Source of the DNA: Mumia sp. ZJ1417
GTDB lineage: Bacteria > Actinomycetota > Actinomycetes > Propionibacteriales > Nocardioidaceae
Length of the DNA: 64,000 nucleotides
Reading direction: 5' to 3'
Assembly (NCBI RefSeq): GCF_014127285.1
Contig: NZ_CP059901.1
Span: 2,294,001 to 2,358,000 of the forward strand
Positions 8,377 through 54,218 of the stretch are shown in pieces. The position numbers and the translations under genes are program-made. The first letter of the stretch is position 1, and every line of letters starts with the position of its first letter. The notes below the pieces were generated by a model. It was not told the origin of the DNA. It worked only from the letters and a program-made list of their open reading frames with translations, and did no database searches.

Positions 8377-9618
8377 GTGACCCCGTCGGGGCGCCCGGAG
8401 GAGTCTCCTCCGCCACATCCGTCGCCAGGAATGCCGTTGCTCGACACGTACCGCCGGATCCTCGTGATTCCGGGAGCGCCGGCCTTCAGCTCGGCAGCAC
8501 TCGTCGCCCGGCTCCCGATCTCGATGCTCGGCCTCGGCCTCGTGCTGCTCGTCTCCGAGCAGACCGGCTCGTACGGCGAGGCGGGCGCCATCTCCGCGGC
8601 CGCGCTGATCGCGAACGCCGTCGGGGCCCCGCTCCAGGGCCGGCTGACCGACCGCTTCGGCCAGCACCGGGTGCTTCCCGCAACGGCCGCGCTGTTCGGG
8701 CTGGGCCTGGCGCTCGGCCTCCTCGCGGTCGACCAGAACGCTCCGACTCCCGTCCCTCACCTGTGCGCGGCGCTCGCCGGACTGGCGCTCCCCCAGGCCG
8801 GGTCGATGGTCCGTGCCCGGTGGACGCACAACGCCGAGCCGTCGATGATCCCCACGGCGTTCGCCCTGGAGGCCGTGCTCGACGAGGTCGTCTTCATCGT
8901 CGGTCCCGTCGTGGTCACCTTCCTCGCGACCATGGTCAACCCGTACGTCGGCCTCATCGTCGCCGGCGTCGCGGGCATCAGCGGCTCGCTCGCCCTCGCC
9001 GTGCAGCGACGCACGGAACCGCCCTCTGGCCGTGCTCGCCAGCACGAGAGCCGGCGGGGCGCCATGCCCATCGCACTCCTCGCACCGCTGGTCGGCGCAG
9101 GCGTCGGCTTCGGGATCCTGTTCGGAGCCGCCGAGGTCGTGACGGTCGCGGTGGCCGAGGATGCCGGCCACAAGCAGCTCGCCGGAGTCCTGCTCGCGGT
9201 CTGGGCGGCAGGCAGCCTCATCGCCGGCTTCCTGGTGGGCGCGCGCCCGCCGGCCGTGACCCCGCTCCGCCAGCTGCGGATCACCGCCGCCGTGCTCACG
9301 CTCAGCATCGTCCCCCTCCTCCTGACGACCTCGCTCCCCCTGGTGGCCGCCGCGCTGTTCGTCTCCGGGTTCGCGATCGCACCGAGCATGGTGGCGGCGA
9401 CCAGGCTCGTCGAGCAGGGCGTCCCTAAGGAGCGACTCACCGAGGGCATCGCATGGTTCACGACCGGCCTGGCGACGGGCGTCGCACCCGGCGCCGCCGT
9501 GTCGGGGTGGGTCGTCGACAACGCCGCCCCCTCCTGGGGCTACGCCGTCTGCCTCGGAGCGGGCGTGCTGGCGATGGCCGGATCGTGGGTCATCCGTGGC
9601 TCGCGTGCAGTTCAGTAG
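8377..9618 (+). CDS. MFS transporter
   Basis: This 413-residue major facilitator has about 12 hydrophobic segments. The loop [16 protein letters not shown] (residues ~85-100) corresponds to the MFS signature between helices 2 and 3. The second half repeats the pattern ([21 protein letters not shown]). It resembles drug- or metabolite-efflux members with no close substrate clue. The start is uncertain: a GTG at 8377 has only GCAGGG near it, and an ATG at 8431 would remove a Pro-rich 18-residue extension. It diverges from hemH with a 38-base gap and its 3' end overlaps the convergent TRIC gene by 7 bases. Confidence 0.82.
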
Positions 9619-40848: not shown

Positions 40849-42186
40849 TCAGGGGTTGATCAGCACGCGGCTGAGCTCGGGCAGCGCCGCGAGCTCGCGG
40901 TCGAGGATCTGACGAGCATGGGTCACGGAGTCCACGAGCGGGTGCAGCGCGAGCGCTTTCAGGGCGGCCGAACGCGAACCGGAGGTCGCGGCCTCGATCG
41001 TCGTCCGTTCCACGTCCTTCACGGTCGAGACGAGTCCACGCTCGTGCGGGAGCAGCTGTGACACCGCGACGGGACGCGGACCGTCGGCACCGACGGTGCA
41101 CGGCACCTCGACGATCGCGTCCGCGTCGACCGCGTCGAGGGTCCCGTCATTGGGGACGTTGAGCACGAGGTCGGCCCCCTCGTCGGCCGCGATCGCCGCC
41201 ATGAGCGCCAGCGCCACCCGGTCGTACCCACCGCCGTCGAGGTCCTCGTCGTCGCGGGCGCCGGCGTCGGTGCTCGCGCGTCCTTCGGCCATGTAGGTCT
41301 CCTCGCGGTCGAGCCGCGTGCGCTCCCAGTGCGCGAAGGCGTCCCCCTCCCCGGCATAGAAGCGCTCCTGCTGCTCCAGCAGATACTCGCCGCGCGTCAC
41401 ACCGGCCCTCTCGATCGACGCGACGGCGTCGGCGGTGTAGTACCAGTACCAGAGGTATTCGTTGGGGACCGTGCCCAACGACGCCAGCCACTGCGGGCCG
41501 AAGAGCCGGCCCTCCTCGATCTGCGTCAACCGGCTGGGGTCGGCGAGCAGCCCCGGCAGCAGGTCGACGCCGTCGACGACCGCACGGTGCAGCCACCCGA
41601 GGTGGTTCAGCCCTGCATAGTCGAACGTGATCTGCTCCCGCGGGATCTCCAGGAGGCGTGCCACCCGCTTGAAGAGACCGACCGGCGAGTCGCAGATCCC
41701 GATCACCCGGCGCCCGAGCACCGCGGACATCGCCTCGGTGACCATGCCGGCGGGGTTGGTGAAGTTGATGACGTACGCCTCCGGCGCCGCGCGGCGCACC
41801 GTCTCTGCGAGCGCCAGCGCGACGGGGATGGTCCGAAGGCCGTAGCAGACGCCCCCGGCACCGGTCGTCTCCTGACCGAGGACGCCGACATCGAGAGCGG
41901 AGCGCTCGTCGCAGACGCGCCCCGCCAGGCCGCCGACTCGCATCGCCGAGAACACGAAGTCCGCACCCGACACCGCGTCGGCCAGGTCCGTCGTGAGGCG
42001 CACCCGCGGCGGACGGGCGTACTCGCCCGCGATCTCCGACAGCACCGCCGCGACGCGCTGCAGCCGGACACCGTCGGTGTCGTGGAGGACGAGCTCGTCG
42101 ACACGCGAGGTGTGCTCGTCCGAGGCCAGCGCGCGATAGACGAGCGGCACCCGGAACCCTCCGCCACCGACGATGGTGAGCCTCAC
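40849..42186 (-). CDS. GH4 family glycosidase (6-phospho-beta-glucosidase-like)
   Basis: This 445-residue NAD- and Mn-dependent glycosidase works by oxidation-elimination on phosphorylated disaccharides. The N-terminal Rossmann VRLTIVGGGGFRVPLVYRAL binds NAD. The Mn-site Cys lies in GICDSPVGLF, and NFTNPAG and NHLGW are GH4 hallmarks. The GTG start overlaps the DeoR stop by 4 bases (GTGA), so they are coupled. With the divergent PfkB kinase and amino-sugar genes, the substrate may be a phosphorylated GlcN or GlcNAc glycoside instead of cellobiose phosphate. That is inference. Confidence 0.92.
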   Translation of the reverse strand: MRLTIVGGGGFRVPLVYRALASDEHTSRVDELVLHDTDGVRLQRVAAVLSEIAGEYARPPRVRLTTDLADAVSGADFVFSAMRVGGLAGRVCDERSALDVGVLGQETTGAGGVCYGLRTIPVALALAETVRRAAPEAYVINFTNPAGMVTEAMSAVLGRRVIGICDSPVGLFKRVARLLEIPREQITFDYAGLNHLGWLHRAVVDGVDLLPGLLADPSRLTQIEEGRLFGPQWLASLGTVPNEYLWYWYYTADAVASIERAGVTRGEYLLEQQERFYAGEGDAFAHWERTRLDREETYMAEGRASTDAGARDDEDLDGGGYDRVALALMAAIAADEGADLVLNVPNDGTLDAVDADAIVEVPCTVGADGPRPVAVSQLLPHERGLVSTVKDVERTTIEAATSGSRSAALKALALHPLVDSVTHARQILDRELAALPELSRVLINP

Positions 42187-42962
42187 GAGTCCTCCTGGGT
42201 GTCGTACGGGCGGGCGACGTGGACGTCGACGGCGGCATCTTTCATCACCCGTGCGGTCTCGTCGTCGACGGGGCGGTCCGTCACCAGCACGTCGTACTGG
42301 TCGGGCCCGCACACCCGGGCGTATCCACCCCCGGGGAGCTTGGTGTGGTCGGCGAGGAGCACGACCCGGTCGGCGACCTGGAGCATCGCCTTCTTGACAG
42401 GGACCTCGACGGCCGTGGTGTCGAAGACCGACCCGTCGCGCCGGACCCCGCTCGTGCCGAGGAAGAGGACATCGGCCTGGACCTGGGCGATCGCCTGCTC
42501 GGTGAGGAACCCGACCATCGAGTGGTAGTTCGTACGGACCAGACCACCGAGCAGCATGAGGTCGACGACGGGGTCGTCGCGCAGCTCGTCGTACACGGCG
42601 AGGCTGGACGTGATCACGGTGACCCGGCGTCCACGCAGCAGCCGGGCGACCAGGCTCGTCGTCGTGCCGATGTCCAAGACCACGACCGCGTCGTCGGGGA
42701 CCAGGGTCACCGCGTGCTCGGCGATGGCCCGCTTCTCGAGTGGGTTCTGCGTCGCGACGCGCTCGAAGGGTGCCTCGCGGTCGAGCGTGGGAGCGGCCCC
42801 GCCACGGAGGCGACGGAGCTGGCCGGCGTGCGCCAGCGCGGACAGGTCCCGGCGGATGGTCGCGTCGCTGACGTCGAGCACGCGCGCGAGCGTGGCGACG
42901 TCGACGGGACCGCTGGTCTCGAGGAGATCGAGGAGCCGCTCGTGTCGGAGATTTGCACGCAC
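42183..42962 (-). CDS. DeoR/GlpR family sugar regulator
   Basis: This 259-residue repressor has an N-terminal helix-turn-helix (VATLARVLDVSDATIRRDLSAL, residues ~17-40). The DeoR C-terminal sensor follows, with VVLDIGTTTSLVARLL and FLGTSGVRRDGSVFDTT, which bind a sugar phosphate. The GTG at 42962 gives the usual VRxxxRHERLLDLL opening; a GTG at 42992 would place a likely operator inside the gene. It is coupled to the GH4 gene and divergent from the PfkB/ABC operon, so it probably controls both. Confidence 0.9.
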   Translation of the reverse strand: MRANLRHERLLDLLETSGPVDVATLARVLDVSDATIRRDLSALAHAGQLRRLRGGAAPTLDREAPFERVATQNPLEKRAIAEHAVTLVPDDAVVVLDIGTTTSLVARLLRGRRVTVITSSLAVYDELRDDPVVDLMLLGGLVRTNYHSMVGFLTEQAIAQVQADVLFLGTSGVRRDGSVFDTTAVEVPVKKAMLQVADRVVLLADHTKLPGGGYARVCGPDQYDVLVTDRPVDDETARVMKDAAVDVHVARPYDTQEDS

Positions 42963-42982
42963 ACGGTGACCATAACAGGCAG

Positions 42983-43032
42983 ATCCGCGCACGGATACGC
43001 ATCCACGCTCACCTCTTGCGCGATCCTGCGCA
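42983..43032. promoter_or_regulatory. two palindromes in the divergent DeoR-PfkB promoter
   Basis: ATCCG-CGCA-CGGAT (42983-42996) and TGCGC-GATCCT-GCGCA (43017-43032) lie between the divergent starts (42962 and 43052). They are candidate DeoR operators, and the second would overlap the PfkB promoter. Confidence 0.5.
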
Positions 43033-43051
43033 TTTGAGCGACACTCACGGA

Positions 43052-44170
43052 ATGGCCCACGACAGCCCTGAGACCGACGACCTGGCGTGTGACTTCTTCG
43101 TGACCGGCCCGGTGTTCCTCGACATCATCTTCACCGGTCTGCAGGAAGCGCCAGTCGGAGGACGGGAGGTCATGACCTCGGGGATGGGCTCGAGCCCGGG
43201 CGGCGTCGCGACGCTCGCCGTCGCCGCCTCTCGCCTCGGGCTGCGAACCTCGCTGGCCGCGGCGTTCGGTGACGACATGTACGGCGACTACCTGTGGGGC
43301 ACGCTCGAGGACGACGAGGCGATCGACCTGTCCGCGTCGCACCGGTGGCCCCACTGGCACTCGCCGGTCACGGTCTCGCTCGCCTATGACAAGGACCGCG
43401 CGATGATCACCCATGCGCACAAGCCCCCGCGGGCCGACCTCGCGGTCCCCCACGTCCTGCCGACGGCGCGTGCCGCGTTCGCTGACGTGGGCGATGAGCG
43501 GCCTGACTGGCTCGACGCCTCCGCCCAGCGCGGCACGCGCATCTTCGCCGACGTGGGCTGGGACCCGACCGGCCTCTGGGACGCGACGTCGCTGCGCGAA
43601 CGGCTCGACGGGTGCTATGCCTTCGTCCCCAACGCCGTCGAGGCGATGACCTACACCGGCACCGACTCCCCCGGCGCCGCGCTCGAGCGGATCCGTGACT
43701 GGGTCCCGCTTGCCGTCGTGACCGCGGGCAGCTCGGGCTCGTACGCTGCCGACGCCACCACCGGCGAGACCGCGTGGGCGCCGGCGCTCACCGTGCCCGC
43801 GCTCGACCCGACCGGGGCCGGCGACGTCTTCCTCGCAGGGCTCGTCGCCGCCACCCTCCGCGAGTGGCCGTTGCTGCAGCGCCTGCGCTTCGCCAACCTC
43901 TGCGCCGCACTGTCGGTACGCGACTTCGGTGGTGCGCTGGCCGCGCCAGGCTGGGGCGCCATCTGTGAGTGGTGGGAAGCCCTCGAGCCCGGCTCCTGGC
44001 TGGCGCGCGACTACGCCTTCCTCGACGACGTGCTGACGACCGTCGAGCACCGCACGTACGGCCGAGCCGTCGCCACCATCGGCTTCGTCGGGGACACCCA
44101 TGACCACCCGAGCCACACCCCGACCGAGCCTCGGACCCGAGATTTCCGCACCGCCCCCCGGGGCGAATGA
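43052..44170 (+). CDS. PfkB family carbohydrate kinase
   Basis: This 372-residue ribokinase-fold enzyme phosphorylates a sugar with ATP in the cytoplasm. The substrate-side GG motif (MGSSPGGVATLAVAASRLG, residues ~45-65) and the catalytic DPTGAGDVFLAGLV (residues ~250) are intact. The unusually long C-terminal extension (about 50 residues, ending in Arg/Pro-rich sequence) is outside the family fold. It is first gene of the plus-strand sugar operon; the binding protein starts 15 bases after its stop. It could make the sugar-6-phosphate that GH4 and NagB need. Confidence 0.9.
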   Translation: MAHDSPETDDLACDFFVTGPVFLDIIFTGLQEAPVGGREVMTSGMGSSPGGVATLAVAASRLGLRTSLAAAFGDDMYGDYLWGTLEDDEAIDLSASHRWPHWHSPVTVSLAYDKDRAMITHAHKPPRADLAVPHVLPTARAAFADVGDERPDWLDASAQRGTRIFADVGWDPTGLWDATSLRERLDGCYAFVPNAVEAMTYTGTDSPGAALERIRDWVPLAVVTAGSSGSYAADATTGETAWAPALTVPALDPTGAGDVFLAGLVAATLREWPLLQRLRFANLCAALSVRDFGGALAAPGWGAICEWWEALEPGSWLARDYAFLDDVLTTVEHRTYGRAVATIGFVGDTHDHPSHTPTEPRTRDFRTAPRGE

Positions 44171-44185
44171 CACCCAGGAGCCGCC

Positions 44186-45559
44186 ATGACCGTCCGTGCC
44201 GTCAAGAAGTCGGTGCTCACCGCCGCCGTCGCGGCCGCGAGCGCCGTGCTCGCCCTGTCTGCATGCACGCCCGGCGGCGGAGGCGGTGACGACGAGGGCA
44301 AGGAGGCCAAGCCCGACGACATCTCGACCGACGTCGCCGCGATGGGCGACCTCACCCTGGACGTCTGGGACCAGGAGGTGCGCGGTGGGCAGGCGAAGCA
44401 GATCGAGACCCTCAACGCGGCGTTCGAGAAGAAGTACCCGAACGTCACGATCAAGCGCACCTCGAAGTCCTTCGACGACCTCCAGAAGACCGTCCGCCTC
44501 GCGATCACCAACGACGACCCGCCAGATGTCGTCCAGGTCAACAACGGCCGCGCCGACATGGGACAGTTCGTCTCCGCTGGGCTGCTGCAGTCGCTCGACG
44601 GGTACGCCGAGGTCTACGGCTGGGACGAGCGCTTCCCCGAGTCGGTGCGCAGCACGGCCTCGTACAGCAAGGACGGCAAGACCTTCGGTGAGGGTTCGCT
44701 CTTCGGGATGGCGCAGGTCGGCGAAATGGTCGGCCTGTGGGTCAACAAGCAGAAGCTCGGCGACCTCGGCATCGAGGCCCCGAAGACGCTCGACGAGCTC
44801 GAGGCCGCGATGAAGGCCGCAAAGGCCGCCGGCGAGCTGCCGGTCCAGCTCGGCAACGCCGAGGCGTGGCCGGCGATCCACGACTACGCCGTCGCGATGA
44901 ACCAGTACGTGCCGCGCGACGACACCCGTGCGCTCGGGTACGGCCGCGAGGGAGCCTCGTGGACCACAGAGGAGAACGTCGACGGCGCCGACCTGTTCAA
45001 GTCCTGGGTCGACGCGGGCTACCTGACGCCCGACTTCAACGCCGTGCCCAACGACACCGCGTGGCGCAACTTCGCCAAGGGCCAGGGCGTGTTCATGATC
45101 GGCGGCACCTGGTACCAAGCAGACCTCGAGGCTGCGATGGGCGACAATCTCGGCTTCGCGCTGCCGCCGGTCGGCCCGGTCGGCGAGCTGGCCGTGACCG
45201 GCGGCACGGGCCTCCCGTTCGCAATCACCGAGGCCAGCGAGCACGCCGACGCGGCCGCGGCATACCTCGACTTCCTCACCAACGCCGACGCGATGAAGGT
45301 GATCCAGGAGAACGGCGGGCTCCCGGTCATCGACGGCGACGCAGCCAGCGCGACCGGTGTCGGCAAGGAGGTCGTGGAGGCCTGGAACCAGGTGACCGCA
45401 GAGGACTCCCTCGTGCCGTACCTGGACTGGGCGACGCCGGACATGAGCGACCTGCTCGGCCAGGAGCTCCAGAAGCTCAGCGCCGGCTCGACGGACACCG
45501 CCGCGTTCCTCGACGCCCTCGAGAAGAACTACACGGACTTCACGGACCAGAACGAGTGA
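44186..45559 (+). CDS. ABC transporter sugar-binding lipoprotein
   Basis: This 457-residue family 1 extracellular solute-binding protein has signal peptide residues ~1-28 and lipobox LSAC, which anchor it to the outer membrane leaflet. The Gly/Asp-rich linker (PGGGGGDDEGK) follows. The two-lobed domain includes QVNNGRADMGQFVSAG, GKTFGEGSLFGMAQVGEMVGLWVN and FAKGQGVFMIGGTWYQ. It delivers an oligosaccharide or amino sugar to the permeases encoded next. Its stop overlaps the first permease start by 3 bases. No ATPase gene is present, so a shared MsiK-type ATPase is likely. Confidence 0.93.
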   Translation: MTVRAVKKSVLTAAVAAASAVLALSACTPGGGGGDDEGKEAKPDDISTDVAAMGDLTLDVWDQEVRGGQAKQIETLNAAFEKKYPNVTIKRTSKSFDDLQKTVRLAITNDDPPDVVQVNNGRADMGQFVSAGLLQSLDGYAEVYGWDERFPESVRSTASYSKDGKTFGEGSLFGMAQVGEMVGLWVNKQKLGDLGIEAPKTLDELEAAMKAAKAAGELPVQLGNAEAWPAIHDYAVAMNQYVPRDDTRALGYGREGASWTTEENVDGADLFKSWVDAGYLTPDFNAVPNDTAWRNFAKGQGVFMIGGTWYQADLEAAMGDNLGFALPPVGPVGELAVTGGTGLPFAITEASEHADAAAAYLDFLTNADAMKVIQENGGLPVIDGDAASATGVGKEVVEAWNQVTAEDSLVPYLDWATPDMSDLLGQELQKLSAGSTDTAAFLDALEKNYTDFTDQNE

Positions 45560-46458
45560 CGAGCCAGGGCGCGCGACGGCGCCACGGACCCCCAGGAGAG
45601 CCGCGCAACGTCGCCTATCTCTATCTCCTGCCGGGGTTCGTGGTGCTCGCGCTCTTCCTGCTGGCGCCGCTCGCCTACGCGGTGTGGCTGTCGTTCTTCG
45701 CGTGGGACGGGCTCTCCTCCGGCACCTGGGTGGGGCTGCAGAACTACGTCGACGTGCTCACCGACCCGGCGCTGCGCACGCCGTTCGGGCACGCGCTCGT
45801 GCTGCTTGTGTTCTTCTCGGTGATCCCGGTGACGTTGGGACTCCTGGCGGCCTCGTTGCTCGTCCGGTCGACAGTGCGCGGGCGCGGGATCTTCCAGGCC
45901 GTCGTGTTCGTCCCGCAGGTGATCGCGCTGACCGTCGTCGCCGTCGCGTGGAAGCGGATTCTCGCGCCGGACGGCCCGCTCAACGAAGCGCTGCGCGCGG
46001 TGGGTCTCGACGGGCTCGCACGCGGCTGGCTCGGCGACCCGAGCACCGCGCTGATCGCGATCGGGCTCGTCGGCACGTGGCTCGGCACCGGCCTGTGCAC
46101 CGTGCTCTTCCTCGCAGGGCTGTCACGGATGGACCGCGCGGTCTACGACGCCGCCCGCCTCGACGGCGCCGGCTTCTTCCGCGAGACCTTCGCCATCAGC
46201 CTGCCGTCCCTGCGCAACGAGCTCGCCGTCGCCCTGACGCTGACGATGGTCGCCGCGCTGCGGACGTTCGACCTCGTCTATCTGATGACCTCCGGCGGAC
46301 CGGGCGGCGCGACCGCCGTCCCGGCGTACGAGGTCTACATGAAGTCGATGCGGCAGGGCGACGTCGGCACCGGTGTGACGATCGCGCTGCTGCTGGCGGC
46401 GTTCATCATGCTGCTCACCGTCCTCGTGAACCGGATCCCGGAGCGTGAGAACCGATGA
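45556..46458 (+). CDS. sugar ABC transporter permease 1 (MalF/UgpA type)
   Basis: This 300-residue inner-membrane subunit has six helices after a short basic N-terminus (VAYLYLLPGFVVLALFLLAP first). The EAA loop YDAARLDGAGFFRETFAISLPSL (residues ~195-218) docks the ATPase. The GTG start overlaps the binding-protein stop (GTGA), and the stop overlaps the second permease (ATGA). Like other MalF-type CUT1 permeases it pairs with the MalG-type partner. Confidence 0.94.
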   Translation: MTSQGARRRHGPPGEPRNVAYLYLLPGFVVLALFLLAPLAYAVWLSFFAWDGLSSGTWVGLQNYVDVLTDPALRTPFGHALVLLVFFSVIPVTLGLLAASLLVRSTVRGRGIFQAVVFVPQVIALTVVAVAWKRILAPDGPLNEALRAVGLDGLARGWLGDPSTALIAIGLVGTWLGTGLCTVLFLAGLSRMDRAVYDAARLDGAGFFRETFAISLPSLRNELAVALTLTMVAALRTFDLVYLMTSGGPGGATAVPAYEVYMKSMRQGDVGTGVTIALLLAAFIMLLTVLVNRIPERENR

Positions 46459-47264
46459 AGACCTCGCGGCTCGAGCGCAGCGTCACGATCGTCGTCCTGG
46501 CGCTCGGCTCAGTCGTCGCCCTCTTCCCGATCGCGATGATCGTCGCGTCGGCGTTCGTCTCCGACAACCCCAACGAGTCCGGCATCGTCTGGAGCAACCT
46601 CGCCACCGCGTGGGACGAGGGGCACTTCTCGACGTACATGCGCTCGAGCGTGATCGTCACGGTGTGCGTGGTCGTGCTCGCGACGGCGCTGTCGTGCATG
46701 CTCGGCTACGCCTTCGGGACGATGCGCTTTCGCGGCTCGTCCGTCCTGTTCTACGTGCTGCTCCTCGGCCTGATGGTGCCGAACGAGGCGATCGTCGTCC
46801 CGCTCTACTACCAGCTGCGCGACCTGGACCAGATCAACACGTACCAGGCGCTGATCTTTCCGCAGGTCGCGCAGTCGCTCGCGTTCGGCACCTTCTGGAT
46901 GCGGGCGTACTTCCGAGGGACATCGCGTGACCTGGTCGAGGCGGCGCGGCTCGACGGCGCCGGGCACTTCCGGACGTTCTGGTCGGTGCTCCTGCCGATG
47001 GGGCGTCCCGCGGTCGTGACGATGGTCGTGCTGTTCTCGATGTGGACCTGGAACGAGTTCTTGCTCCCGCTGGTGATGATCCCCAGCAACGAGGACCTCC
47101 GGACCGCGCCGCTCGGGCTGACCTTCTTCAGCGGGCAATACACCGGATCGCCGTCGCTCCTCGCAGCAGCCGCACTGATCGTCGCCCTGCCGATGCTCGT
47201 GCTCTTCCTGATCGCCCAGCGTCACTTCATCCGCGGCATGACCGAGGGGGCGGTGAAGGGCTGA
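46455..47264 (+). CDS. sugar ABC transporter permease 2 (MalG/UgpE type)
   Basis: This 269-residue CUT1 permease has six helices, the first being VTIVVLALGSVVALFPIAMI. The EAA loop is VEAARLDGAGHFRTFWSVLLPM (residues ~155-176). The motif TWNEFLLPLVMI and the ending QRHFIRGMTEGAVKG are characteristic of the family. It overlaps permease 1 by 4 bases. The PIG-L gene starts 45 bases after its stop and is likely in the same transcript. Confidence 0.95.
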   Translation: MKTSRLERSVTIVVLALGSVVALFPIAMIVASAFVSDNPNESGIVWSNLATAWDEGHFSTYMRSSVIVTVCVVVLATALSCMLGYAFGTMRFRGSSVLFYVLLLGLMVPNEAIVVPLYYQLRDLDQINTYQALIFPQVAQSLAFGTFWMRAYFRGTSRDLVEAARLDGAGHFRTFWSVLLPMGRPAVVTMVVLFSMWTWNEFLLPLVMIPSNEDLRTAPLGLTFFSGQYTGSPSLLAAAALIVALPMLVLFLIAQRHFIRGMTEGAVKG

Positions 47265-47309
47265 ACCACGTGGTTGACCGTCGATCGATCCGAGAACCAA
47301 GGGGGACTC

Positions 47310-50123
47310 ATGGTCCAGCGCACGCAGCAGACGTCCAACTCCACCGGTGCCGCTCCACCACCACGATGGCGAAGGCTCGCCACGACCTCGGCAGCAGCCG
47401 CGCTCCTCGGTGCCGGCCTCGTCACCGGGCCGGCAGCAGCAGCGCCGTCCCCCGAGACGACGGCCACGAAGGCCACCGACCTCGACGTGCTCTTCGTCGG
47501 CGCGCACCCTGACGACGAGTCGGGGCGGCTGTCGACGTTCGGCGAGTGGGGCGAGCGGTACGGCAGCCGCGTCGGCGTCGTGACGATCACCCGCGGCGAG
47601 GGCGGCGGCAATGCCGTCGGCCCCGAGGAGGGCCCGGCCCTCGGCCTCATCCGTGAGCGCGAGGAGCGCGCCGCCGTCGGTACGGCCGGCGTCCGCGACG
47701 TGTTCAACCTCGACAAGGTCGACTTCTACTACTCCGTCAGCGCTCCCCTGCACCAGCAGGCGTGGGACGCGGAGGACTCCCTCGAACGGCTCGTCCGGAT
47801 CGTCCGCGAGACCCGGCCCGAGGTCGTCGTGACGATGACCCCTGCCCCGACCCCCGGCAACCACGGCGGTCACCAAGAGGCCGCGCGGCTCGCCGCGGAG
47901 GCGTACGCCGTGGCCGGCGACCCGTCGCGCTTCCGCTCGCAGATCACCAAGGAGGGACTGCGCCCGTACGCTCCGGCGAAGCTCTTCTTGAACTCCGCCC
48001 GCGGCAGCGGCCAGGTCGGTTCCTCGTGCCCGCGCGCGTTCACCCCGACCGATCCCACCGACGACGTGTACGGGGTCTGGGCCGGGGAGCGCGCGGCCAG
48101 CGGCAAGACGTGGGCGCTCGTCGAGCGCGAGGCGCAGCGCAAGTACGCCTCGCAGGGCTGGGCCGGGTTCCCCGATCCCAGCACCGACCCCGAGGCGATC
48201 GGGTGCGACTACTTCACCCAGGTGGCCTCGCGCGTGCCGTTCACGCGCGGCGACCAGTCGGCCGCCGCAGCCTCCCCCGCGACGATGCTGCAGGGTGCGA
48301 CGCGCCAGGCTCGCGGCGGACTTCCGCTCGGGACCGGCCTCGAGCTCACCGGCGAGGACGTCGACGTCGTGCCCGGCCAGTCGGTGACGCTCGAGGCGCG
48401 GCTCACCGCGCCGAAGCGCACACGGCTCGTCCGTGCCGCCGGTGCGGTGACGCTGCCGCAGGGGTGGAGCGGGACGACCTCGGTGTCGTTCGGCACGGTT
48501 CCTCGTGGGACGACGGTCACCCGCACGATCACGGTGACCGCACCGAGCGGGGTCACGGCGAACACCCGGGCACTGGTCGGGCTCGACGTGCGCTCAGGCG
48601 CGGGCGCCGGCTCTACCAACCAGAAGCTCTCGGTGACGCCGAGCGTGTCCGGGACCCAGCAGCTCCTGCCGCAGGTCGCCGAGTTCGAGGAGTGGGCTCC
48701 TACGGTCGGGCTTCCGCAGCTGCGCGGGCTCGTCACGCCGGTGCTGACGCTGCCCAGCGGCGGCACACGTACGCTCGGCATCGACGTCACGAACCACAGC
48801 GACGCCGCTGAGTCCGGAACGGTCACGGTGGACCTGCCGGACGGCTTCGCGGCGGCCGACGACACGATCTCGTACGAGGGACTCGCGCCAGGTGCGACAC
48901 AGCGCCTCGACCTCGAGGTCACCAACACCGACGACACGCTGCCCACGTCGAACGAGGGCGGCGTCGGCGGTGACTACGGTTACACGATCACGACGACGAG
49001 CAGCTCCGGGTCGTCGACCACGACGGCGGCGCTCGAGCTGGTCCCGACGACGCAGGTCGGCGAGACGGCGGCGCCGACGCTGGACGGCACCGTCGGCGCC
49101 GGTGAGTATGCGGCCACGATCGACCTCTCGCGGCGCTGGGAGGGGGAGGCGTGCACGTCTCCGGCGGACTGCAGCGCGACCGGCTACGTCACGCGGTCGG
49201 GCGACGACCTCTACGTCGCCGCCGAGGTGACCGACGACGTCAAGAGCGCCGTGCTCGCGGCGTCGGACTGCAAGCGCCACTGGCGCGTCGACTCGCTCGA
49301 GGTCGCCATCGATCCCGACGGGTCGTCGGAGAACACCTCCACCACCTTCAAGATCGGGGCACTCCCGTTCACCGCCGAGGGCCAGTCGTGCGCCGCGCGC
49401 GATGCCGACCACACCCAGGGCCCGATCGGCGCCTTCCCGATGTCCGGCGAGGGCGGCTCCGACGAGACGACGCTCGATCCGGGCAACGTCGCGCCCGGGT
49501 TCGAGATGGCCTCGGCGGTCGGCGCGCCGTACACGGGCTACGTCATCGAGATGAAGATCCCGCTCGCCGCGCTGCCGGCGACGGTCGATCCCGACCGGAT
49601 GGGCTTCAACATGTTCGTCTACGACTCCGACACCCAGGACAAGGCCGGCCAGACCCGCGTCGGGTGGTCGACGTGGGGCGGGGTCCAGGGCGACCCGTAC
49701 CGATGGGGTCGTGTCGAGCTCGGGGGTGGCGCGCCGCCGGAGGTGGAGAGCGTGCCGCCGAAGCTGGACTTCCCGGGGCTCGACAGCCTCGACTCGCCGC
49801 AGTCGATCGAGCAGGCCGTACGCTCCGGCGTCGGGCTGTCGGGGCTCCCGACGCTCGCCCCGCGGTCGACCGCGCGCGTGCGTCGGGCGACGCAGCGCGG
49901 TGACGCGGTCGTGGTGACCGTCGACGTCGACAAGCGCGGCACCGCGCACCTGTTCGCGGTCACCGGTGACGACACGCAGCTGGCCGGTTCCGTCGAGGTC
50001 GCCCTGCGACCAGGTCGGCGTCAGATCCGGATCCCGGTGACGGAGACACCGTCGTCCGTGCTGCTCGGGTTCGACCCCGACCGCCGTACGGGGACCGCGA
50101 GCTCGTCAGTGCGGGTGCGGTGA
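47310..50123 (+). CDS. large secreted PIG-L family deacetylase with C-terminal sugar-binding-type domains
   Basis: This 937-residue exported protein has a signal peptide (residues ~19-45, RRLATTSAAAALLGAGL, cleavage at AAA/A). The PIG-L/LmbE zinc deacetylase domain spans ~55-330; metal ligands HPDDE (66-70) and the GNHGGHQEAA His pair are visible. Residues ~350-580 are tandem Ig-like NEW3-type domains (QSVTLEARLTAP, GGTRTLGIDVTN). ~590-830 forms a CBM9/DOMON-like domain (APTLDGTVGAGEY, WRVDSLEVAIDPDG). It likely removes N-acetyl groups from GlcNAc-containing glycans outside the cell. GGGGGA precedes the ATG, and nagB overlaps its stop by 4 bases. Confidence 0.88.
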   Translation: MVQRTQQTSNSTGAAPPPRWRRLATTSAAAALLGAGLVTGPAAAAPSPETTATKATDLDVLFVGAHPDDESGRLSTFGEWGERYGSRVGVVTITRGEGGGNAVGPEEGPALGLIREREERAAVGTAGVRDVFNLDKVDFYYSVSAPLHQQAWDAEDSLERLVRIVRETRPEVVVTMTPAPTPGNHGGHQEAARLAAEAYAVAGDPSRFRSQITKEGLRPYAPAKLFLNSARGSGQVGSSCPRAFTPTDPTDDVYGVWAGERAASGKTWALVEREAQRKYASQGWAGFPDPSTDPEAIGCDYFTQVASRVPFTRGDQSAAAASPATMLQGATRQARGGLPLGTGLELTGEDVDVVPGQSVTLEARLTAPKRTRLVRAAGAVTLPQGWSGTTSVSFGTVPRGTTVTRTITVTAPSGVTANTRALVGLDVRSGAGAGSTNQKLSVTPSVSGTQQLLPQVAEFEEWAPTVGLPQLRGLVTPVLTLPSGGTRTLGIDVTNHSDAAESGTVTVDLPDGFAAADDTISYEGLAPGATQRLDLEVTNTDDTLPTSNEGGVGGDYGYTITTTSSSGSSTTTAALELVPTTQVGETAAPTLDGTVGAGEYAATIDLSRRWEGEACTSPADCSATGYVTRSGDDLYVAAEVTDDVKSAVLAASDCKRHWRVDSLEVAIDPDGSSENTSTTFKIGALPFTAEGQSCAARDADHTQGPIGAFPMSGEGGSDETTLDPGNVAPGFEMASAVGAPYTGYVIEMKIPLAALPATVDPDRMGFNMFVYDSDTQDKAGQTRVGWSTWGGVQGDPYRWGRVELGGGAPPEVESVPPKLDFPGLDSLDSPQSIEQAVRSGVGLSGLPTLAPRSTARVRRATQRGDAVVVTVDVDKRGTAHLFAVTGDDTQLAGSVEVALRPGRRQIRIPVTETPSSVLLGFDPDRRTGTASSSVRVR

Positions 50124-50857
50124 CGACACCACCCGGATCGACCGTCCGCCACCTGGTCCGCGACGACGCGGGCCAGGTGGCGGACACGGCCGCAGACCTC
50201 ATCCTCGACGTGCTCGAGACCGACAGCGCCGTCGGTCTCGCGACCGGCTCGTCACCCCTCGGCGCGTACCAGGAGATCGTCCGCCGGGTACGTTTAGGCG
50301 CGACGGCCTCCCCGGTCGCGCGGCGCGGCTTCCTGCTCGACGAGTACCTCGGCCTCCCCGCCGGCGACCCGAACACGTACGCCTCGGTGATCAGACGCGA
50401 GGTCGCCGACGCGCTCGGGCTCGACGTCCGGGGTCCGGACGGCCAGGCGGCCGATCCGGAGCAGGAGGCCGAGCGGTACGGGCGCGAGGTCGTGGCGGCG
50501 TCCGTCGCGGTGCAGGTCCTCGGGATCGGCCGCAACGGTCACCTCGGGTTCAACGAACCGGGCTCGTCGCTGGACTCGCAGACCCGCGTCGTGCGGCTGA
50601 CCGAGTCGACACGACGGGACAACGCGCGGTTCTTCGACTCCCCCGCCGACGTCCCAACCCACGCGATCACCCAGGGGCTCGCGACCCTCATGCAGGCGCG
50701 GCGTCTGGTGCTGATCGTGCTCGGCGAACGCAAGGCGGAGGCTGTCCACGCCGCGCTGCACGGTCCGGTGGATCCCGCATGTCCCGCTTCGGTGCTGCAG
50801 CGACACCCCGACGCGTACGTCGTCACCGATCGCGAGGCCGCCGCAGCCGTACGCTGA
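50120..50857 (+). CDS. nagB: glucosamine-6-phosphate deaminase
   Basis: This 245-residue cytoplasmic enzyme converts glucosamine-6-phosphate to fructose-6-phosphate and ammonia, feeding glycolysis. GLATGSSPLGAYQEIV (phosphate loop), FLLDEYLG (catalytic Asp), and GIGRNGHLGFNEPGSS are the invariant NagB motifs, and ALMQARRLVLIVLGERKAEA is typical of the C-terminus. It is a little shorter than E. coli NagB (266). The GTG overlaps the PIG-L stop (GTGA). No nagA deacetylase is in the window; the secreted PIG-L enzyme could fill that role. The membrane acyltransferase-like gene begins 4 bases after its stop. Confidence 0.95.
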   Translation: MTTPPGSTVRHLVRDDAGQVADTAADLILDVLETDSAVGLATGSSPLGAYQEIVRRVRLGATASPVARRGFLLDEYLGLPAGDPNTYASVIRREVADALGLDVRGPDGQAADPEQEAERYGREVVAASVAVQVLGIGRNGHLGFNEPGSSLDSQTRVVRLTESTRRDNARFFDSPADVPTHAITQGLATLMQARRLVLIVLGERKAEAVHAALHGPVDPACPASVLQRHPDAYVVTDREAAAAVR

Positions 50858-50861
50858 ACGC

Positions 50862-52043
50862 GTGCCCGAGCGGTCGACGATCCTCTCGCGGCGACGGCTG
50901 CTGGGCGTCGACGCCGCCCGGGCCGTCGCGCTGATCGGGATGATCTCGACCCACGTCGAACCGCACATCGGATCCGACGGTCAGACGTCTCTCGCGCACG
51001 TCCTCGCCGCAGGACGCGCCTCGGCGCTCTTCGCGGTGCTGGCCGGTGTGAGCATCGCGCTCGCCAGCGGCGGCACATCGCCACCCCACGGTCGTGGGTG
51101 GGCGACCGCGGCGGCCGCGACCACCGCGCGGGCCGCAGTGATCTTCGTCGTGGGGCTGGTCCTCGGGGCGTTCGACTCCGGTCTCGCGGTGATCCTCTGC
51201 TACTACGGGGTGCTCTTCGTCGTCGCACTGCCGTTCCTCCGGTTGAGGGCCGGGTGGCTGATCGGTCTCGGCCTGACCTGGGCGTTCGTCGGGCCCGTGC
51301 TCAGCCAGTGGCTCCGCCTCGGCATCGAGACGCCTCTGGACTCCGGGGTTCCGAACGTCGGGACGCTGCTCACCGATCCGGTCGGCACCGCGTCGAGCCT
51401 GCTGCTCACCGGCTATTACCCGGTGCTGACCTGGACCGCCTACCTGCTGGTCGGCATGGGTGTCGGCCGGCTGCCCCTGCGGCGGGTGGGTGTCGCGGTG
51501 TGGCTCGCTGTCGGCGGTACGGCCCTGGCCGTGCTCTCGTACGCGGGCTCGGCGTGGTGGCTCGCAGGCGGCGGGCTCGCCGAGCTCGAGGCGGCCGGCA
51601 CGGGTCGGCACTTCACGACGGGCCCGATCGATGACGACATCCTTCACGTCGGCTTCTTCGGGACGACCCCGACGACCTCGTGGGAGTGGCTCGGGATCGC
51701 TTCACCGCACTCGGGTGCGCCCCCTGACCTCCTGCACACGCTCGGGTGCGCTCTCGCCGTGCTCGGGCTCATGCTGCTGCTCGAGCACGCGGTCGGACGC
51801 GCCCTGTGGCCGGTCGCCGCCATCGGCAGCATGACGTTCACGCTGTATTCGCTGCACGTCGTCCTCGTCGCGACCGTCCTGCCGGAGACGATCGACGACG
51901 CGTTCCTCGTCCACACGGCGATCGCGGCCGCGATCGCGATCCCGTGGCGCCGGTACGTCGGGCGCGGGCCGCTGGAGGCGGTGGCCGCCGTCGCCGCGAA
52001 CGGCGCCCGACGAAGGGTCCGCGAGCATGCCACGCAAAGGTGA
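50862..52043 (+). CDS. DUF1624/DUF418-type membrane protein, HGSNAT-like
   Basis: This 393-residue membrane protein has about 10 helices and opens RRLLGVDAARAVALIGMISTHVEP, the signature of heparan-alpha-glucosaminide N-acetyltransferase-like (DUF1624) and DUF418 proteins, including the His that receives acetyl in HGSNAT. GRASALFAVLAGVSIALASGG and AIGSMTFTLYSLHVVLVATV are further landmarks. It may move acetyl groups across the membrane onto glucosamine residues, but a DUF418 protein of unknown function is equally possible. It sits directly after nagB, apparently in the same operon. Confidence 0.72.
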   Translation: MPERSTILSRRRLLGVDAARAVALIGMISTHVEPHIGSDGQTSLAHVLAAGRASALFAVLAGVSIALASGGTSPPHGRGWATAAAATTARAAVIFVVGLVLGAFDSGLAVILCYYGVLFVVALPFLRLRAGWLIGLGLTWAFVGPVLSQWLRLGIETPLDSGVPNVGTLLTDPVGTASSLLLTGYYPVLTWTAYLLVGMGVGRLPLRRVGVAVWLAVGGTALAVLSYAGSAWWLAGGGLAELEAAGTGRHFTTGPIDDDILHVGFFGTTPTTSWEWLGIASPHSGAPPDLLHTLGCALAVLGLMLLLEHAVGRALWPVAAIGSMTFTLYSLHVVLVATVLPETIDDAFLVHTAIAAAIAIPWRRYVGRGPLEAVAAVAANGARRRVREHATQR

Positions 52044-53431: not shown

Positions 53432-53520
53432 GCAGAGGTTCCTTGGGTGAGGGGGTTGTCGAATACTGCCAGGCCCGGATCGCCGCGTGCCAACCGCGTA
53501 GTTCACGAGGCTCCGACATG

Positions 53521-53540
53521 TCTGTACATCTCTGTACACT
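53521..53540 (+). promoter_or_regulatory. TCTGTACA direct repeats (likely antitoxin operator)
   Basis: TCTGTACATC and TCTGTACACT are two copies 10 bases apart, each containing the palindrome TGTACA. They end 8 bases before the antitoxin ATG at 53548. One-turn spacing suits cooperative binding of Phd-type dimers. Confidence 0.55.
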
Positions 53541-53547
53541 GACGCCC

Positions 53548-53832
53548 ATGACGACGATGTCCATGAGCGAGGCCCGCGCGCAGCTCGCTGCGCTCCTCGA
53601 CCGGGTCGAGGCGGGCGAGGAGATCACGATCACCCGTCACGGGCGGGCTGTCGCACGGCTCGCCCCGCCCCACGAGTCACGGACCGCGCGCGTCGACCAC
53701 CTCTTCGCCGCGGCCGATGCCATCGCCGTCGAGCTCGATGCCTCGAGGCACGCGCCACTCCCCGATCCGACCGGCGAGGCGGACGCTGATGCGCTCGTAC
53801 GCGCGATGCGCGAGGACCGAGACGCGTGGTGA
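53548..53832 (+). CDS. Phd/YefM-type antitoxin
   Basis: This 94-residue antitoxin has an N-terminal Phd/YefM DNA-binding fold MTTMSMSEARAQLAALLDRV followed by EEITITRHGRAVARLAP, the family's classic motif. The C-terminal ~40 residues (DHLFAAADAIAVELDASRH) would wrap the toxin. It represses its own operon through the TGTACA repeats just upstream. The toxin start overlaps its stop by 4 bases (GTGA), as expected for a toxin-antitoxin pair. Confidence 0.92.
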   Translation: MTTMSMSEARAQLAALLDRVEAGEEITITRHGRAVARLAPPHESRTARVDHLFAAADAIAVELDASRHAPLPDPTGEADADALVRAMREDRDAW

Positions 53833-54218
53833 CCGCGGCCTTCGACGCCGACATCGTGATCTACGCGGCGGCCGGCGACGACCGCGGAGACCTACTGCTC
53901 GACGCGATCCACGACGCGGCCGCCGACTCACCTGCGGGGGTGGGCTCGACCCTTCTCCTCACGGAGACCCTGACGTTGGCCGGCGACCGTCTCGCCGAGC
54001 GCCCCAGGCTGCTGGCGATCCTCGGTCGCCTGGCGCTGCTTCCCGTGACCCACGACGTCGCCGTGATGGCTGCCGCGCTCCGCGTCCGGCACCGCCTGAA
54101 GACTCCGGACGCCCTCCACCTCGCGACCGCGATCTCCGCGGGGGCAGACCGCTTCGTCACGAACAACCGACACGACTTCGCCCGCGGCATCACCGAGATC
54201 GACGTCGTCCACCCCTGA
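53829..54218 (+). CDS. PIN domain toxin (VapC-like)
   Basis: This 129-residue RNase toxin has four acidic PIN positions: Asp in AAFDADIVIYAA, Glu in LLLTETLTLAG, Asp in RLKTPDALHLATA and Asp in VTNNRHDFAR. The chain fits VapC length (about 130). VapC toxins usually cut tRNA or rRNA loops. It is translated from a GTG overlapping the antitoxin stop; a GTG one codon earlier is possible. A VapB-type antitoxin would be more common, so the Phd-type pairing is a mild variation seen in other actinobacteria. Confidence 0.92.
   Translation: MTAAFDADIVIYAAAGDDRGDLLLDAIHDAAADSPAGVGSTLLLTETLTLAGDRLAERPRLLAILGRLALLPVTHDVAVMAAALRVRHRLKTPDALHLATAISAGADRFVTNNRHDFARGITEIDVVHP

What the first reader, a model, noticed from the sequence alone, without database searches (positions are those of the whole stretch)
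40849..52043. Amino-sugar locus pairing a secreted PIG-L deacetylase with NagB and an HGSNAT-like membrane acyltransferase
In the sequence, DeoR/GH4 diverge from PfkB, a sugar ABC importer lacking its ATPase, a 937-residue secreted PIG-L enzyme, nagB and a DUF1624-like protein, with 1-4 base overlaps. NagB needs glucosamine-6-phosphate, and no NagA is present; deacetylation outside the cell by PIG-L could replace it. An HGSNAT-like protein next to a deacetylase suggests deacetylation outside and possible re-acetylation across the membrane. PIG-L with CBM9/NEW3-like domains in an uptake operon is unusual. The acetyl cycle is inference.
Basis: partly seen in the sequence, partly recalled or inferred. 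Interest (0 to 1): 0.62.

Follow-up and report, generated by a model that had tools for sequence, protein, structure and literature searches.

The report
Secreted deacylase with inositol-glycoside uptake operon
A soil bacterium carries a widely conserved but unnamed gene set that seems to strip an acyl group from an amino-sugar compound outside the cell, import the rest and split it, and neighbouring genes in distant relatives suggest that one half of that compound is inositol.

Summary
The genes are as described, in a complete 4.19 Mb genome of (by inference) Mumia. NagB is optional. The HGSNAT-like gene was seen only in Mumia, so the acetyl cycle is not supported. A nagA lies elsewhere in the genome.

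New lead: the cassette adjoins myo-inositol catabolism genes in Actinomadura, Conexibacter and Paenibacillus. In Nocardioidaceae, iolD occurs in 21 of 22 genomes with the GH4 marker against 48 of 223 without (p 4e-12, not corrected for phylogeny); 16 of those 22 have PIG-L. The GH4 has the signature of 6-phospho-alpha-glucosidases. Best reading: deacylation, uptake, phosphorylation and cleavage of an N-acyl-glucosaminyl-inositol such as mycothiol or its precursor; substrate unproven. Against it: most cassette genomes lack nagB, the nearest solved binding proteins include chitin-oligosaccharide ones, and fold comparison ties MshB with chitobiose deacetylase. Closest known system: csnREFGHK. New variant of a known kind.

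The parts
40849..42186 (-). GH4 NAD-dependent glycosidase of the 6-phospho type; GICDSP and GLNHLGW signatures
   Evidence: PF02056/PF11975; nearest solved relatives are 6-phospho-glucosidases; GTG start overlaps the DeoR stop by 4 nt
42183..42992 (-). DeoR-family regulator (ORF as listed; the true start is probably about 42962, by inspection)
   Evidence: PF00455/PF08220
42972..42991 (+). putative DeoR operator ATAACAGGCAGATCCGCGCA
   Evidence: similar element near the DeoR start in most of the 44 DeoR/PfkB regions extracted (judged by eye; a few loci are in the set twice); one exact site in the whole genome and one 3-mismatch site, against 2 matches for the backwards control pattern
43052..44170 (+). 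PfkB/ribokinase-family sugar kinase
   Evidence: PF00294; nearest solved fructokinase, pseudouridine kinase, ribokinase
44186..45559 (+). sugar-binding protein (SBP) of an ABC importer
   Evidence: PF01547; nearest solved 9xf5, then chitin-oligosaccharide-binding NagB2/NagB1
45556..46458 (+). ABC permease 1
   Evidence: PF00528
46455..47264 (+). ABC permease 2
   Evidence: PF00528
47310..50123 (+). secreted PIG-L/LmbE zinc amidase with NEW3 and CBM9-like domains; H66, D68, D69, R115, H185, H188 invariant
   Evidence: PF02585, PF10633, PF06452; alignments A1 (12 sequences) and A3 (34 sequences); model m263f6694c91d matches MshB and diacetylchitobiose deacetylase; secretion inferred from the N-terminus by inspection
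50120..50857 (+). NagB-like glucosamine-6-phosphate deaminase; optional part
   Evidence: PF01182; below the TIGR00502 cut-off
50862..52043 (+). HGSNAT_cat membrane protein; seen only in Mumia, not part of the conserved unit
   Evidence: PF07786 38.1 bits, cut-off 22; distribution

Best explanation
The core is a catabolic cassette for an N-acylated alpha-glucosaminyl-inositol, of the mycothiol / GlcNAc-Ins type. (1) The secreted PIG-L enzyme removes the N-acyl group outside the cell. (2) The SBP/permease pair, with a shared ATPase encoded elsewhere, imports the free-amine pseudodisaccharide GlcN-Ins. (3) PfkB phosphorylates the glucosamine at C6. (4) GH4 splits the 6-phospho-alpha-glucosaminide to GlcN-6-P and inositol. 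(5) GlcN-6-P goes to NagB or to cell-wall synthesis; inositol goes to the iol pathway. DeoR is a local repressor. Shown by sequence: gene content, conserved order, intact PIG-L and GH4 signatures, physical and genomic association with iol genes. Inferred: substrate, order of steps, phosphorylation site, regulation.
For: Gene order: six partner genes with PIG-L in 45 of 80 named loci, partial in 12 plus 4. Direct iol adjacency: iolD in 8 and iolD or iolG in 13 of 80 loci, all 13 among the 61 with a whole or partial cassette and none among the 19 without. NCBIfam equivalog cut-offs reached by iolD, E, C, G, B in Paenibacillus L072, by iolD, C, B in Actinomadura L076 and by iolD, C, B in Conexibacter L120. 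Chance expectation 0.16 iolD in the loci of 49 genomes, observed 7, from three lineages. Co-occurrence in 245 Nocardioidaceae genomes: iolD in 21 of 22 with the GH4 marker against 48 of 223, all 12 genera represented; restricted to the 16 with PIG-L, 15 of 16 against 54 of 229, p 2e-8. iolD over cut-off in 54 of 59 genomes with a whole or partial cassette. PIG-L chemistry: a review states that all LmbE-like enzymes identified to its date act on N-acetyl- or N-acyl-glucosamine cores, among them GlcNAc-Ins (MshB) and mycothiol conjugates (Mca) (PMC4101496, passages). GH4: CDSP and LNHLGW resemble the solved 6-phospho-alpha enzymes 6dux and 1u8x (CDMP, LNHFGW), not 1s6y and 5c3m (CNVP, LNHMVF). 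NagB beside PIG-L in 5 of 15 Nocardioidaceae PIG-L cassettes.
Against: Most cassette genomes lack nagB: 13 of 22 in Nocardioidaceae and 39 of 49 elsewhere. In overall score the GH4 is nearest to solved 6-phospho-beta-glucosidases, and NCBIfam's best sub-cut-off hit is an alpha-galactosidase subfamily (180 bits, cut-off 486). The SBP is nearest to solved proteins that include chitin-oligosaccharide binders, and its weak best NCBIfam hit is NgcE. Structure does not choose: Dac Z 21.8, LnmX 21.7, MshB 21.3, tied. MshB Tyr142 and Asp146 are not matched in the phmmer alignment (my reading). The iolD association belongs to the importer/kinase/GH4 module: the 6 marker genomes without PIG-L (4) or undecided (2) also have iolD. 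In most lineages, Mumia included, iol genes are not next to the cassette, and no operator match falls at the Mumia iolD. A member of the Paenibacillus family (G655) has PIG-L without iol, GH4 or PfkB nearby. Co-occurrence was not corrected for phylogeny; the xylA control was uninformative (2 of 245).
Confidence: 0.42

Rival explanations
1. Chito-oligosaccharide route: PIG-L deacetylates chitobiose or longer chitooligomers outside, the importer takes up GlcN-containing oligomers, PfkB and GH4 cleave them, NagB uses GlcN-6-P.
For: csnREFGHK in Streptomyces has the same plan for chitosan oligomers (PMC6097792, passages). SBP resembles solved chitin-oligosaccharide binders. Dac-type PIG-L structures tie for best. 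NagB in 5 of 15 Nocardioidaceae PIG-L cassettes.
Against: csn-like GH4s (L139, L141; taken as csnH from an SBP/permease pair beside them, repressor and kinase not checked) form a separate clade with CNVA, while the cassette GH4 has the alpha-type CD[ST]P. Recurrent iol adjacency is unexplained. nagB is absent from most cassette genomes. GH18 co-occurrence was not tested.
Confidence: 0.25
2. A larger glycan: mannosylated glucosaminyl-inositol from GPI anchors or fungal glycosyl-inositol lipids, or an N-glycan fragment, of which the cassette handles the core.
For: In three Streptomyces-like loci the same DeoR-GH4 pair is followed by a GH38 alpha-mannosidase, in one also by a GH29 fucosidase. PIG-L carries NEW3 and CBM9-like domains, which one would not expect on an enzyme of a small molecule.
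Against: Those loci lack PIG-L in the 20 kb fetched; no GH38 gene was recognised beside the PIG-L cassettes whose neighbours I printed (both outputs partly cut, neighbours read by eye).
Confidence: 0.15
3. The inositol link is incidental: carbohydrate-rich genomes keep both systems, and the cassette handles some other N-acyl-amino-sugar glycoside.
For: Association not corrected for phylogeny; three linked lineages only; the cassette is usually not beside iol genes.
Against: Observed adjacency far above chance, 7 against 0.16 expected; nagB associates much more weakly in the same genomes (9 of 22 against 44 of 223, p 0.03).
Confidence: 0.12
4. Acetyl cycle: external deacetylation by PIG-L and re-acetylation across the membrane by the HGSNAT-like protein.
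For: PF07786 match over cut-off in four Mumia sequences; the gene follows NagB directly in G000 and G004.
Against: HGSNAT-like gene not detected in any non-Mumia stretch fetched; displaced within Mumia; catalytic His untestable here.
Confidence: 0.03

Closest known systems
csnREFGHK chitosan-oligosaccharide operon of Streptomyces (PMC6097792 and PMC5635096, passages read)
   Same: Repressor + ABC transporter + GH4 glycosidase + putative saccharide kinase; handles glucosamine oligosaccharides
   Different: ROK not DeoR repressor; csn-like GH4 of another clade (CNVA); no secreted PIG-L in the published description; linked to secreted chitosanases
MshB / Mca (mycothiol synthesis and conjugate amidase; PMC4101496 and PMC4267739, passages)
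   Same: LmbE/PIG-L fold and metal motif; N-acyl-glucosaminyl-inositol substrates
   Different: Short and cytoplasmic (recalled); this one is secreted, 937 aa with NEW3 + CBM9-like domains, far below both NCBIfam cut-offs
Archaeal diacetylchitobiose deacetylase (Dac)
   Same: PIG-L fold, Z 21.8 over 214 residues; catabolic deacetylation of an amino-sugar disaccharide (recalled)
   Different: 23% identity over the aligned residues; other partner genes (recalled)
GH4 6-phospho-glucosidases (solved 1s6y, 5c3m, 6dux, 1u8x, 1up6)
   Same: 6-phospho-glycosidase family and signature
   Different: Substrate probably phosphorylated by a PfkB kinase after ABC import, not by a PTS as in the classical cases (recalled)

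Membership tests
LmbE/PIG-L superfamily | HxDD + distal H metal/base motif | tested here: met
   A65-H66-P67-D68-D69 and H185-G-x-H188; H66, D68, D69, H185 and H188 invariant in A1 (12) and A3 (34)
LmbE/PIG-L superfamily | PIG-L fold | tested here: met
   AF2 pLDDT 87; MshB, LnmX and Dac Z about 21-22
MshB equivalog | NCBIfam TIGR03445 cut-off 224 bits | tested here: not met
   37-40 bits
MshB equivalog | Arg68 and His144 substrate contacts; Tyr142, Asp146 | tested here: inconclusive
   R115 and H185 align with Arg68 and His144; no match at Tyr142 or Asp146, by my reading of the phmmer alignment against residues named in PMC4101496
Mca equivalog | NCBIfam TIGR03446 cut-off 277 bits | tested here: not met
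   41-45 bits
Diacetylchitobiose deacetylase (Dac) | Deacetylation of GlcNAc2 | not testable with these tools
   Fold match only
GH4 6-phospho-alpha-glucosidase type | CDxP motif and LNHxGW as in solved alpha enzymes | tested here: met
   CDSP and LNHLGW in the window protein; CD[ST]P in 62 of the 70 GH4 sequences from PIG-L loci (4 CDQ[WN], 2 CDAP, 2 without a motif match; a few loci counted twice), out of 85 GH4 sequences in the script (recount)
GH4 6-phospho-alpha-glucosidase type | Alpha-linked 6-phospho-glycoside cleavage | not testable with these tools
   needs enzyme assay; overall score is higher to 6-phospho-beta enzymes
csnREFGHK operon | ROK repressor CsnR | tested here: not met
   DeoR family
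csnREFGHK operon | CsnH-type GH4 | tested here: inconclusive
   separate clade from L139/L141 in the FastTree; but those two are taken as csnH-like only from an SBP/permease pair beside them, no authentic CsnH sequence was compared
csnREFGHK operon | SBP + 2 permeases + kinase + GH4, no own ATPase in the locus | tested here: met
NagB equivalog | TIGR00502 cut-off 236.9 bits | tested here: not met
   183.4 bits; PF01182 over its cut-off
HGSNAT / transmembrane acyltransferase | PF07786 over cut-off | tested here: met
   38.1 bits against 22
HGSNAT / transmembrane acyltransferase | Acetyl-accepting catalytic His | tested here: inconclusive
   no PDB relative to align; model too poor to search; H31 and H46 conserved in 4 Mumia sequences
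myo-inositol catabolism partner | neighbouring genes reach iol equivalog cut-offs | tested here: met
   L072 iolD, E, C, G, B; L076 iolD, C, B; L120 iolD, C, B; L136 iolC. Below cut-off: L076 iolG (298 against 355) and iolE (147 against 290), L120 iolE (156 against 290)

The most novel reading that the evidence does not exclude
A dedicated scavenging pathway for extracellular mycothiol or its glucosaminyl-inositol core: a secreted mycothiol-amidase-like enzyme, an importer for GlcN-Ins and a kinase/GH4 pair that breaks it to GlcN-6-P and inositol. Bacteria, including presumed non-producers such as Paenibacillus, would eat the redox thiol of actinobacteria.
Probability: 0.27. Interest if true: 0.82.

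Novelty: new variant of a known kind. Interest (0 to 1): 0.6.

Why it matters
If true, it gives a function to a large family of secreted multidomain PIG-L proteins, names a substrate class for a GH4/PfkB module seen widely in Actinobacteria, and predicts a catabolic route for glucosaminyl-inositols. A search for mycothiol catabolism, degradation, scavenging, uptake or GlcN-Ins found 31 papers; the 25 shown held GlcN-Ins only and none of the other four phrases. Even if the substrate is wrong, the cassette is a conserved system that I did not see described in the listings, and it is directly testable.

Tried and rejected
Acetyl cycle with HGSNAT: rejected because the gene was detected only in Mumia stretches. 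HGSNAT catalytic His: not decidable. Direct membership in csnREFGHK: rejected on the repressor; the GH4 clade speaks against it too but without an authentic CsnH. Choice of substrate by PIG-L fold: failed, MshB, LnmX and Dac tie. Shared operator between cassette and iol genes in the own genome: none found. xylA as a negative control: uninformative, 2 of 245. nagB as general partner: not supported. Test in the family of Paenibacillus MSJ-34: 2 of 265 genomes have the PIG-L, one of them without iol, GH4 or PfkB nearby. A GH18 co-occurrence test and a phylogeny-corrected test were not run. Paper searches on PIG-L + CBM9 (0 papers), PIG-L + chitobiose, glycosylinositol and GH4 motifs gave nothing on this cassette in the listings.
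Full report
Anatomy. The locus is real and lies at 2,294,001-2,358,000 of a complete 4.19 Mb genome. The genus is inferred to be Mumia: the same-genus genome G002 has a contig of 116,173 bases that equals the Mumia sp. zg.B17 contig of L058 in length and match. Pfam and NCBIfam give GH4, DeoR, PfkB, a sugar SBP, two permeases, PIG-L + NEW3 + CBM9_1, a NagB-like protein and HGSNAT_cat. PIG-L has an N-terminal signal-like stretch (by inspection), an intact HPDD motif and an HGGH motif.

What is conserved. A search of 58 genomes (own included) found a match to the PIG-L protein in 24, a few of them fragments. In Nocardioidaceae the order GH4-DeoR // PfkB-SBP-permease-permease-PIG-L recurs in G004, G005, G010, G013, G027 and G035, is split at a contig end in G002, is rearranged in G008, and in G038 (another family of the order) carries a split PfkB hit. 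Of these 80, 45 hold all six partner genes, 12 hold PfkB with some others, 4 hold permeases but not the full set (L058, L069, L136 at contig ends or on short contigs, and L073 without a PfkB hit), and 19 hold none by these criteria. The carriers include Nonomuraea, Actinomadura, Phycicoccus, Brachybacterium, Jiangella, Amycolatopsis, Kibdelosporangium, Conexibacter, two Paenibacillus (partial by these queries) and a Thermomicrobiales MAG (partial). PIG-L homologues in the Micromonospora and Saccharopolyspora loci of that list, and those of family f4 and most of f3 of the order, stand without the cassette in the stretches fetched. Two genomes of another family (L143, L144) carry the full cassette; their GH4s group with Jiangella.

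What is not conserved. NagB sits beside PIG-L in G000, G002, G004, G027 and G107, 5 of 15 Nocardioidaceae PIG-L cassettes with enough sequence beyond PIG-L. nagB at E <= 1e-40 occurs in 9 of 22 GH4-marker genomes against 44 of 223 others (p 0.03), and in 10 of 49 other cassette genomes. The HGSNAT-like gene was detected only in the four Mumia cassette genomes, with intervening DNA in G005 and G002. This removes the acetyl cycle as an explanation of the unit. PIG-L itself is sometimes missing: among the 22 Nocardioidaceae genomes with the GH4 marker, 16 have PIG-L, 4 do not (G012, G032, G127, and G034 with a remnant) and 2 contigs end too soon (G020, G133) (G015 was seen only in pieces).

The inositol link. 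In the two Paenibacillus loci a complete iolD-E-C-A-G-B operon ends about 2 kb upstream of PIG-L, and the permeases, SBP, PfkB and GH4 follow on the other side (in L072 iolD, E, C, G, B reach their equivalog cut-offs and iolA the methylmalonate-semialdehyde dehydrogenase subfamily). In Actinomadura, iolG-E-C-B-D or part of it follows PIG-L in ten loci (L074, L076, L077, L085, L090, L093, L104, L112, L134, L136); in Conexibacter iolB-C-E-D precedes it. Thus iolD or iolG lies in 13 of 80 loci, all with a whole or partial cassette (13 of 61 against 0 of 19, two-sided p 0.03). Under random placement 0.16 iolD would be expected in the loci of the 49 genomes searched, and 7 were seen; collapsed to three lineages the Poisson tail is about 1e-5 to 5e-5 under assumed numbers of 14-22 lineages. 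Across 245 Nocardioidaceae genomes the GH4 marker (E <= 1e-90) marks 22 and iolD (E <= 1e-150) 69; the overlap is 21, the exception G142 being 81% complete; odds ratio 77, p 4e-12; all 12 genera include such a genome. Counting only the 16 with PIG-L, 15 have iolD against 54 of the other 229, p 2e-8. The 6 marker genomes without PIG-L or undecided all have iolD, so the association belongs to the import/kinase/GH4 module as a whole. None of this is corrected for shared ancestry. At class level the same GH4 is also common outside PIG-L cassettes (PIG-L seen in 6 of the 20 stretches then fetched, two of the other 14 being csn-like), so I did not use it there.

Chemistry. A review says that all LmbE-like enzymes identified to its date recognise N-acetyl- or N-acyl-glucosamine cores (PMC4101496, passages only). 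The model of the catalytic domain (pLDDT 87) has MshB as first Foldseek hit, while the second aligner ties Dac (Z 21.8, 3.6 A, 214 residues), LnmX (Z 21.7, 2.8 A, 208 residues) and MshB (Z 21.3, 3.5 A, 241 residues). The genome has its own MshB and an Mca-like protein besides, so the secreted protein is not the biosynthetic one. The GH4 carries GICDSP and LNHLGW. In the alignments the solved 6-phospho-alpha-glucosidases 6dux and 1u8x read CDMP/LNHFGW and the 6-phospho-beta ones 1s6y and 5c3m read CNVP/LNHMVF; the two csn-like GH4s read CNVA and fall in another clade. A CD motif therefore points to an alpha-linked 6-phospho-glycoside, as GlcN-alpha-inositol would be and chitobiose would not. 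Its overall score, though, is higher to the beta enzymes. Three GH4 lineages appear in PIG-L cassettes (the main clade; Paenibacillus with L086 and L125; L080, L081, L082 and L090), as if the function were kept while the gene was exchanged.

Wider module. In three loci of a large-genome genus that I take to be Streptomyces (f22 g51) the DeoR-GH4 pair is followed by a GH38 alpha-mannosidase (Pfam), with PfkB nearby in two of the three and no PIG-L. One genome (L153) has DeoR-GH4//PfkB with another transporter and NagB. So DeoR + GH4 + PfkB may be the older core, and PIG-L plus its importer one way of feeding it. The mannosidase leaves room for larger glucosaminyl-inositol glycans.

Regulation. 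The DeoR/PfkB intergenic region holds a conserved element, in Mumia ATAACAGGCAGATCCGCGCA; it occurs once in the genome, with one further site at 3 mismatches and two matches for the control pattern. Neither site is at nagA or iolD, so the regulator is probably local.

Assessment. That this is a deacylate-import-phosphorylate-cleave cassette for a glucosaminide rests on conserved synteny and family chemistry, and I hold it at about 0.65. That the aglycone is inositol rests on the neighbour and co-occurrence data and the GH4 signature, at about 0.42. That the natural substrate is mycothiol or its core is a guess among glucosaminyl-inositols, at about 0.27.

Noticed in passing
L054 (G034) about 8,684-8,960, minus strand: Same operon, but PIG-L is reduced to a short remnant sharing only part of the CBM9-like region: the enzyme has been lost while importer, kinase and GH4 remain. 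G012, of the same genus, also lacks PIG-L.
   Followed up: partly
L138, L140, L142 (Streptomyces-like genomes, name inferred): DeoR-GH4 followed by a GH38 alpha-mannosidase (and GH29 in L138), without PIG-L.
   Followed up: partly
L080, L081, L082, L090: The cassette GH4 is replaced by a distant GH4 with CDQ[WN] motif placed between PfkB and SBP.
   Followed up: no
L087, L088, L119: Cassettes without a GH4 hit; a protein of one cluster (alanine-racemase-N type, scanned in L119) lies just upstream of PfkB.
   Followed up: no
L153 11,829-18,447: PfkB followed by a 522-aa protein without a Pfam match at E 1e-5, another SBP/permease set and a NagB.
   Followed up: no
L160/L161 (G655): Secreted PIG-L with an AraC-type regulator beside it, no iol, GH4 or PfkB within the 13-14 kb fetched on each side.
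   Followed up: partly
window 53443-54218: Overlapping Phd/YefM-type antitoxin and PIN-domain genes, a likely type II toxin-antitoxin pair.
   Followed up: partly
L121, L126, L127, L128 (Brachybacterium): A GH29-like fucosidase gene lies upstream of the cassette in four of five Brachybacterium loci (cluster 40; Pfam in L126).
   Followed up: no
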